Positions 57,344 to 57,462 of a DNA stretch of 64,000 nt are shown piece by piece. The first letter of the stretch is position 1. Each line of letters begins with the position of its first letter. A program made the translations under genes and the position numbers. Origin of the DNA: Lichtheimia corymbifera B2541 (taxonomy: Eukaryota; Mucoromycota; Mucoromycetes; Mucorales; Lichtheimiaceae); the NCBI GenBank assembly GCA_000697475.1, contig JNEU01000982.1, positions 19,504 to 83,503 of the forward strand, read 5' to 3'. Below the pieces are notes generated by a model that did no database searches, was not told the DNA's origin, and was given only the letters and a program-made list of their open reading frames with translations.

Positions 57344-57462
57344 AAATCGTGAATTCAAGGGGTGCTGCACGTCTAGCTAGGGAAACCTGCAGTGTGCGGC
57401 TGAGACTTTACCCTCATTAGCGGATCAGGATAATGCCTGCGTCGCGATGAATGCCACGATTT
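57344..57462 (+). promoter_or_regulatory. TPP (thiamine pyrophosphate) riboswitch aptamer
   Basis: Near-consensus THI element. P1 is a perfect 8-bp pairing, AAATCGTG (57344-57351) with CACGATTT (57455-57462), continued by ATTCA/TGAAT. P2 pairs GGGT with ACCC (57410-57413). The conserved CTGAGA lies at 57400-57405, and GATCAGGATAATGCCTGCGT (57423-57442) forms P4/P5 with the invariant GGATAAT bulge; GCG/CGC closes P4. In fungi these aptamers control splicing of thiamine synthesis or transport genes according to TPP level. Here the nearest genes on the strand are the sugar transporter (stop 57142, upstream) and cytochrome c (start 58123, downstream); neither is an obvious thiamine gene. Confidence 0.93.

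What the first reader, a model, noticed from the sequence alone, without database searches (positions are those of the whole stretch)
57344..57462. TPP riboswitch with no thiamine gene next to it
The aptamer matches the consensus at every conserved block (CTGAGA, GGATAAT, GCGT, ACCC) and has a perfect 8-bp P1. It sits 200 bp after a sugar-transporter stop codon and 660 bp before cytochrome c. It may lie in a 3' UTR intron of the transporter, since AG|GTATAT occurs 13 bp after the stop; that would resemble the plant THIC arrangement. It may instead lie in a long 5' leader of cytochrome c, or belong to a non-coding transcript. If the first, the transporter may carry thiamine or a precursor.
Basis: partly seen in the sequence, partly recalled or inferred. 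Interest (0 to 1): 0.9.

Follow-up and report, generated by a model that had tools for sequence, protein, structure and literature searches.

The report
TPP riboswitch behind a transporter gene
A fungus that seems unable to make vitamin B1 from scratch carries one detectable vitamin-B1-sensing RNA element, and it lies just behind, not in front of, a transporter gene that has lost the sugar-binding residues of its family, so that transporter may be the regulated vitamin importer.

Summary
The TPP aptamer is real: RF00059, 54.6 bits (gathering 54.3), E 6.1e-8 in the window and 7.7e-9 in the 35 Mb genome, where no second match was found. The organism is a Lichtheimia close to L. ornata. No THI4 or NMT1 gene was detected; TMP synthase and HMP-phosphate kinase are present. 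So the usual biosynthetic targets seem to be missing and the fungus probably imports thiamine or its precursors. The gene 5' of the aptamer is an intact PF00083 transporter whose family lacks the sugar-binding QQ..G.N residues. TPP riboswitches beside sugar-type transporters are published for Mucoromycota, but in 5' UTRs (PMC11683625). Here the aptamer lies 3' of the gene, with AATAAA on both sides, in a 375-nt stretch predicted to fold strongly. Most likely reading: a thiamine importer controlled from its 3' side. A plant-THIC-like splicing route is possible but unsupported: donor/P4-P5 complementarity is no better than chance and no convincing acceptor was found. No transcript data and no related fungal DNA could be reached.

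The parts
55483..57142 (+). Transporter gene, four exons (55483-55756, 55828-55969, 56032-56498, 56559-57142), 488 aa, sugar-porter type MFS; probable importer of thiamine or a precursor (substrate inferred)
   Evidence: Splice model with an open frame; PF00083 333.1 bits; 7 of 488 residues differ from L. ornata P0001
57156..57161 (+). Candidate 5' splice site CAG|GTATAT, 13 nt after the stop codon
   Evidence: Score 8.1 against 5.3-10.7 for six known donors, matrix of my own; such donors occur 0.70 per kb per strand; not shown to be used
57212..57217 (+). AATAAA, candidate proximal poly(A) signal
   Evidence: AATAAA occurs 0.59 per kb per strand in the window, so it may be chance
57230..57338 (+). 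Predicted long hairpin A directly before the aptamer
   Evidence: z -4.25 for 57230-57335, minus strand -4.13; edges chosen after seeing the fold; sliding window 57200-57349 z -3.6
57344..57464 (+). TPP aptamer with P1 (57344-57357/57448-57462), P2/P3, CTGAGA 57400-57405, P4 (57420-57423/57442-57445), P5 (57426-57429/57436-57439), L5 57430-57435, GCG 57439-57441
   Evidence: RF00059 54.6 bits, E 6.1e-8; folds into the TPP form; positions
57466..57598 (+). Predicted three-way-junction domain C right after the aptamer; its first strand GACAGG can pair in C or extend P1
   Evidence: z -4.57 for 57465-57603, minus strand -5.8; total energy -133.6 (C closed) against -129.2 (P1 extended); no TPP or other significant Rfam match there
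57759..57764 (+). AATAAA, candidate distal poly(A) signal
   Evidence: may be chance (0.59 per kb per strand)
58123..58649 (+). Cytochrome c gene, next gene downstream; probably not the target
   Evidence: ATG at 58123, first-exon frame [27 protein letters not shown]; pyrimidine-rich -80..-10 region; gene end read by eye

Best explanation
A functional TPP aptamer lies in the 3' flank of a gene for a probable importer of thiamine or a precursor, in a Lichtheimia with no detectable THI4 or NMT1. It probably belongs to a long form of the transporter's 3' UTR. When TPP is plentiful, binding closes the aptamer on the nascent RNA and changes 3'-end choice or splicing, giving a less productive long transcript; when TPP is scarce the mRNA ends at the proximal AATAAA and the importer is made. 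Shown by computation: the aptamer, its position 3' of an intact transporter frame, the lost sugar-binding residues, and the failure to detect THI4 or NMT1. Inferred: thiamine as cargo, membership of the transporter transcript, the direction of control, and the 3'-end or splicing mechanism.
For: Aptamer E 7.7e-9 genome-wide, all binding motifs present, P4 changed from the consensus yet still paired. Nearest coding end is the transporter stop, 201 nt away, same strand; no frame above 51 aa from an ATG between the aptamer and cyt c. THI4 and NMT1 not detected while TMP synthase (189.1 bits) and HMP-phosphate kinase (273.2 bits) are. In the transporter QQ and N of STP10 are T286, A287 and V292; none of the 67 best of the 120 listed relatives has QQ. 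TPPsw-SUGAR: 43 TPP riboswitches beside sugar transporters, mostly Mucoromycota, with departures in P2, P4 and J2-4 (PMC11683625, passages); P4 and J2/4 are where this aptamer departs too. AATAAA on both sides of the aptamer.
Against: The published TPPsw-SUGAR elements are said to lie consistently in 5' UTRs, and L. corymbifera is reported with an amino-acid-transporter type. Published 3'-UTR aptamers of diatoms do not respond to thiamine (PMC9544697, passages). If mRNAs end at 57212 the aptamer is not in them. Donor pairing is at chance level: 278 of 400 shuffles hold as good a partner and 20 of 354 donor-like sites, this one included, pair as well. No convincing acceptor beyond the aptamer. 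The two AATAAA and the donor are each of a kind expected at 0.6-0.7 per kb. The strong predicted folding is not strand-specific. No transcript, no binding data, no relatives' DNA.
Confidence: 0.5

Rival explanations
1. Separate non-coding RNA: hairpin A, the aptamer and domain C form one structured RNA of about 375 nt (57230-57605) with its own promoter, acting in trans or on its neighbours in a TPP-dependent way.
For: Three adjoining parts with z -4.25, -4.11 and -4.57; 0 of 80 random 106-nt windows reach -3. No coding frame of note in the region.
Against: No promoter-like pyrimidine block before it (0.49; 1123 of 1826 windows are as rich). Edges were chosen from the fold, and the minus strand scores as well. 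Eukaryotic TPP riboswitches known to me are parts of mRNA precursors (recalled).
Confidence: 0.17
2. Long 5' leader of cytochrome c: the aptamer sits in a 5'-UTR intron or leader, as in the usual fungal type, and TPP controls cyt c.
For: Next start codon on the same strand; donor-like GT sites occur between (57508-57624); the 5' side is the usual fungal position (PMC5882874 and PMC11683625, passages).
Against: 660 nt away; pyrimidine-rich promoter-like block at -80..-10 of cyt c (10 of 1826 windows); no strict branch/acceptor pair in 57160-58110; no link of cyt c to thiamine that I know of.
Confidence: 0.1
3. Relic: the aptamer belonged to a thiamine gene (THI4, NMT1 or a second transporter) that was lost here and it now does nothing.
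For: THI4 and NMT1 are not detected in the genome; diatoms keep well-conserved TPP aptamers that do not respond (PMC9544697, passages).
Against: Binding motifs are intact and P4 has changed while still pairing; no trace of a lost gene in the region at the thresholds used.
Confidence: 0.15
4. Chance resemblance, not a TPP aptamer.
For: Only 0.3 bits above the gathering score.
Against: E 7.7e-9 over the whole genome; every binding motif present in order; stable TPP-like fold.
Confidence: 0.03

Closest known systems
TPPsw-SUGAR, putative fungal TPP riboswitches beside sugar transporters (PMC11683625; passages and one 10,000-character part seen)
   Same: Mucoromycota; TPP aptamer beside a gene of sugar-transporter type; departures from consensus in P4 and J2/4
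   Different: Published as consistently 5'-UTR; here 3' of the gene. Mean P3 given as 115 nt; here the P3 arm is about 36 nt (my count)
Plant THIC 3'-UTR TPP riboswitch (Wachter 2007; not held; recalled, with passages in PMC9544697 and PMC7390266)
   Same: Order stop codon, donor, processing signal, aptamer, second signal can be drawn here; AG at the start of P2
   Different: Gene is a transporter, not THIC; donor/P4-P5 pairing at chance level; AG is AAG and lies in the general Rfam consensus, so it is not informative; no isoforms known
Diatom 3'-UTR TPP aptamers on THIC and SSSP (PMC9544697, passages)
   Same: 3' position; one of the genes (SSSP) is needed for thiamine uptake
   Different: There the predicted poly(A) signal overlaps P1 in PtTHIC and the aptamer did not respond; here no AATAAA in P1
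DUR31/NCU01977 thiamin transporters (PMC5997356, passages)
   Same: TPP riboswitch pointed to a transporter later shown to carry thiamin
   Different: Solute carrier 5 family; riboswitch controls splicing of an intron of the gene itself
Postia placenta eIF5B copies with a TPP riboswitch in the 3' UTR (PMC5882874, passage)
   Same: A fungal TPP aptamer recorded 3' of a gene
   Different: Basidiomycete, gene without known link to thiamine

Membership tests
TPP riboswitch aptamer (RF00059) | Covariance-model score above the curated gathering score | tested here: met
   54.6 against 54.3 bits, E 6.1e-8; narrow margin
TPP riboswitch aptamer (RF00059) | CUGAGA and GCG pocket motifs in a three-way junction P1/P2-P3/P4-P5 | tested here: met
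TPP riboswitch aptamer (RF00059) | Binds TPP and changes gene expression | not testable with these tools
   Needs in-line probing and RNA data
TPPsw-SUGAR (PMC11683625) | Beside a gene annotated as sugar transporter in Mucoromycota | tested here: met
   PF00083, TIGR00879 on the L. ornata orthologue, Lichtheimia
TPPsw-SUGAR (PMC11683625) | Located in the 5' UTR of that gene | tested here: not met
   Aptamer 201 nt after the stop codon; no TPP match upstream of the gene
Plant THIC-type 3'-UTR riboswitch | Aptamer downstream of the stop codon on the same strand | tested here: met
Plant THIC-type 3'-UTR riboswitch | 5' splice site after the stop, paired by P4-P5 when TPP is absent | tested here: inconclusive
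   Donor present; best of 245 positions but 278 of 400 shuffles do as well
Plant THIC-type 3'-UTR riboswitch | Intron that removes a proximal processing site, with TPP-dependent isoforms | not testable with these tools
   AATAAA at 57212 lies between donor and aptamer; acceptor unclear; no RNA data
Sugar porter family (TIGR00879/PF00083) by descent | Score above the curated cut-off | tested here: met
   PF00083 333.1 against 22.3; TIGR00879 311.5 against 237.8 for P0001
Hexose/pentose transporter by function | QQ..G.N of TM7 and Q of TM5 (role recalled; positions aligned to STP10) | tested here: not met
   T286, A287, V292 and T162; 25 of 120 listed relatives have QQ, 93 lack both, 2 unclear; none of the 30 in alignment A1 has QQ
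Thiamine transporter by function | Moves thiamine or a precursor | not testable with these tools
   Uptake assay needed

The most novel reading that the evidence does not exclude
A fungal system, evolved apart from plants, that reads TPP from the 3' UTR: the aptamer, perhaps with domain C whose first strand competes for P1, selects between a proximal and a distal 3' end (or splices the proximal one out) of an importer mRNA, in a lineage that lost THI4 and NMT1 and kept salvage and uptake.
Probability: 0.3. Interest if true: 0.75.

Novelty: new variant of a known kind. Interest (0 to 1): 0.55.

Why it matters
It would give a substrate to an unassigned family of mucoralean 'sugar' transporters, show that a lineage can lose the biosynthetic targets of a riboswitch and keep the switch for uptake, and give a fungal case of control from the 3' side (to my knowledge shown to work only in plants). 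It also makes the published 5'-UTR placement of TPPsw-SUGAR elements worth rechecking locus by locus.

Tried and rejected
Second TPP element in the genome: RF00059 at E<=10 gave only this one, with 49 of 1067 first-look candidates scored. A P4/P5 pattern with up to 1 mismatch gave 24 matches (15 for the control pattern), only this one exact; 20 of the 24 became loci and were scanned, only this one is TPP; 4 were not scanned. A CTGAGA/ACCC/GAT pattern gave 9 matches (control 0); cmscan of the 8 others gave no TPP match, including C203:68520, which looked good by eye but has no P5. PMC11683625 says the TPPsw-AA type lacks the L5 motif, so a diverged second element could be missed.

Donor/P4-P5 pairing: it first looked striking (best of 245 positions, -15.2 kcal/mol). 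Controls removed it: 278 of 400 shuffles of 57143-57343 hold as good a stretch; 1232 of 31925 + strand and 1218 of 31990 - strand 20-nt windows reach it; 20 of 354 donor-like sites, 6 of 92 strong ones and 5 of 16 CAG|GT sites reach it, each count including the site itself.

3'-UTR intron: a strict CTRAY branch point with a YAG found nothing in 57160-58110, but by eye only 3 of the 6 known introns hold CTRAY themselves. A relaxed rule over 57160-57760 gave AG ends at 57206, 57316, 57420, 57507 and 57611: the first makes a 51-nt intron without the aptamer, 57420 lies inside the aptamer, the others look weak. The six known introns are 59-73 nt, so an intron over the aptamer would be unusually long.

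Hidden gene between aptamer and cyt c: longest ATG frame 51 aa before the cyt c exon; four stop-to-stop frames of 56-91 aa, one of them overlapping the aptamer, had no Pfam match at E<=0.1.

Repeat or duplicate: 57143-58123 occurs once in the genome. The transporter paralogue on C328 (43-57% identical piece by piece) has no TPP match in 9 kb around it.

Relatives' DNA: viral contigs and genome contigs gave no relative; metagenome scans and paper supplements were capped at 0.

Full report
Observation. The finding holds in the details I could check. RF00059 matches window 57348-57464 on the + strand over the full model with 54.6 bits (gathering 54.3), E 6.1e-8. In the 34.98 Mb assembly the E-value is 7.7e-9 and no second match appears even at E<=10, though only 49 of 1067 first-look candidates were scored. 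The alignment shows a 22-nt insertion in P3 and a missing P3a, which I take to be why the score is low. CTGAGA, ACCC, L5 ATAATG and GCG are intact. P4 reads GCGG/UCGC where the consensus has CCUg/uAGG, so it has changed and still pairs; J2/4 also differs from the consensus. The predicted fold has the TPP form, closed by an inner 5-bp and an outer 8-bp P1.

Organism and genome. The transporter upstream differs at 7 of 488 residues from Lichtheimia ornata O0I10_009921. Known fungal TPP riboswitch targets are THI4, NMT1/THI5 and several transporter families (passages in PMC5882874, PMC5997356, PMC11683625). A THI4 gene was not found: PF01946 gives three short matches over the FAD-binding part (positions 17-62 of 235; 27.3, 26.3 and 24.3 bits), two of which just pass Pfam's cut-off of 26.2; TIGR00292 gives the same three places at 26.8 bits or less against a cut-off of 148.3. 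Two of them lie in frames that I recognise, from recall, as ETF-ubiquinone oxidoreductase; the third was not examined. PF09084 (NMT1) gave no match. TMP synthase (189.1 bits) and HMP-phosphate kinase (273.2 bits) are present, which shows that the search finds genes of this kind; a thiamin pyrophosphokinase exon scored 24.7 bits, below its cut-off of 30.7. The fungus therefore probably salvages thiamine or its halves. The absence rests on one assembly of 432 contigs with no stated completeness.

Transporter. The four-exon frame is intact and scores 333.1 bits for PF00083. The L. ornata copy passes the sugar-porter model TIGR00879 (311.5 against 237.8), and its best-scoring solved relatives are STP10 and STP6. 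Where STP10 has QQITGIN in TM7 this protein has TAFLGTV, and the TM5 glutamine is T162; that these residues bind sugar is recalled. Of the 120 listed relatives (of 300 found), 93 lack both glutamines, 25 have QQ and 2 are unclear. None of the 67 best, and none of the 30 in alignment A1 (taken from the best 32; P0021 and P0026 left out), has QQ. D42 is invariant in A1. The protein is thus a sugar porter by descent with a different pocket. That fits another cargo, thiamine being the obvious candidate beside a TPP aptamer, but does not prove it.

Surroundings. No gene was found between aptamer and cytochrome c. The 70 nt at -80..-10 of cyt c are 74% pyrimidine, as are those of the transporter; 10 of 1826 windows reach this, whereas the 70 nt before the aptamer are 49%. 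I read this as a promoter near cyt c and none at the aptamer. AATAAA occurs at 57212 and 57759, on both sides of the aptamer; at 0.59 per kb per strand, two in this 981-nt stretch is not remarkable. Hairpin A (57230-57335, z -4.25), the aptamer with extended P1 (57334-57472, z -4.11) and domain C (57465-57603, z -4.57) adjoin each other; 0 of 80 random 106-nt windows had z at or below -3. Two reservations: the edges were chosen from the fold (the plain sliding scan gave -3.6 and -2.8 at best), and the minus strand scores as well or better (-4.13, -2.59, -5.8; whole stretch -6.68 against -4.03), so the signal is not strand-specific. GACAGG at 57466 can close domain C or extend P1 (-133.6 against -129.2 kcal/mol in total), a possible expression platform.

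Mechanism tests. The donor CAG|GTATAT lies in the score range of six known donors, by a matrix of mine. It is the best partner of P4-P5 among 245 positions, which is what plant and Neurospora mechanisms would ask for (recalled). But 278 of 400 shuffles of the region hold as good a partner, and so do 20 of 354 donor-like sites, 6 of 92 strong ones and 5 of 16 CAG|GT sites, this one included each time. No convincing acceptor was found beyond the aptamer, and a 51-nt intron 57156-57206 could use the donor without including the aptamer. The 3'-UTR intron idea is open, neither supported nor excluded.

What is known. PMC11683625 (passages and one of seven parts seen) reports 43 TPP riboswitches beside sugar transporters, mostly in Mucoromycota, consistently in 5' UTRs, and an amino-acid-transporter type in L. 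corymbifera, which I did not find here. [quoted passage not shown] PMC5882874 (passages) mentions TPP riboswitches in the 3' UTR of two eIF5B copies of Postia placenta. PMC9544697 (passages) finds that diatom aptamers, all in 3' UTRs, do not respond to thiamine. PMC11134847 (passages) reports loss of thiamine genes in Glomeromycota and Endogonales. Eight searches listed no paper that I recognised as describing a TPP riboswitch 3' of a transporter in a fungus; I saw listings only, and the library does not hold Wachter 2007 and most subscription papers.

Verdict. Aptamer real: 0.97. Serving the transporter: about 0.6. Thiamine or a precursor as cargo: about 0.6. 3'-end or splicing control like that of plants: about 0.3. 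The main gaps are DNA from other Mucorales and any RNA data.

Noticed in passing
window 57466-57598: Predicted three-way-junction domain directly after the aptamer, sharing GACAGG with an extended P1; no significant Rfam match.
   Followed up: partly
window 59717-60532: Diverged direct repeats downstream of cytochrome c: four copies of a 79-nt unit (65-77% to the reference) and two of a 154-nt unit (81%).
   Followed up: no
P0035, P0038, P0039: Acytostelium and Heterostelium proteins, and one unnamed EukProt entry, are 51-52% identical to this mucoralean transporter; possible gene transfer or an old shared family. They keep the N of QQ..G.N but not the QQ.
   Followed up: no
G000:C328:55812-57353 (-): Paralogue of the transporter, 43-57% identical in pieces, also without the TM7 QQ (reads TSMTGTA); no TPP element near it.
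   Followed up: partly
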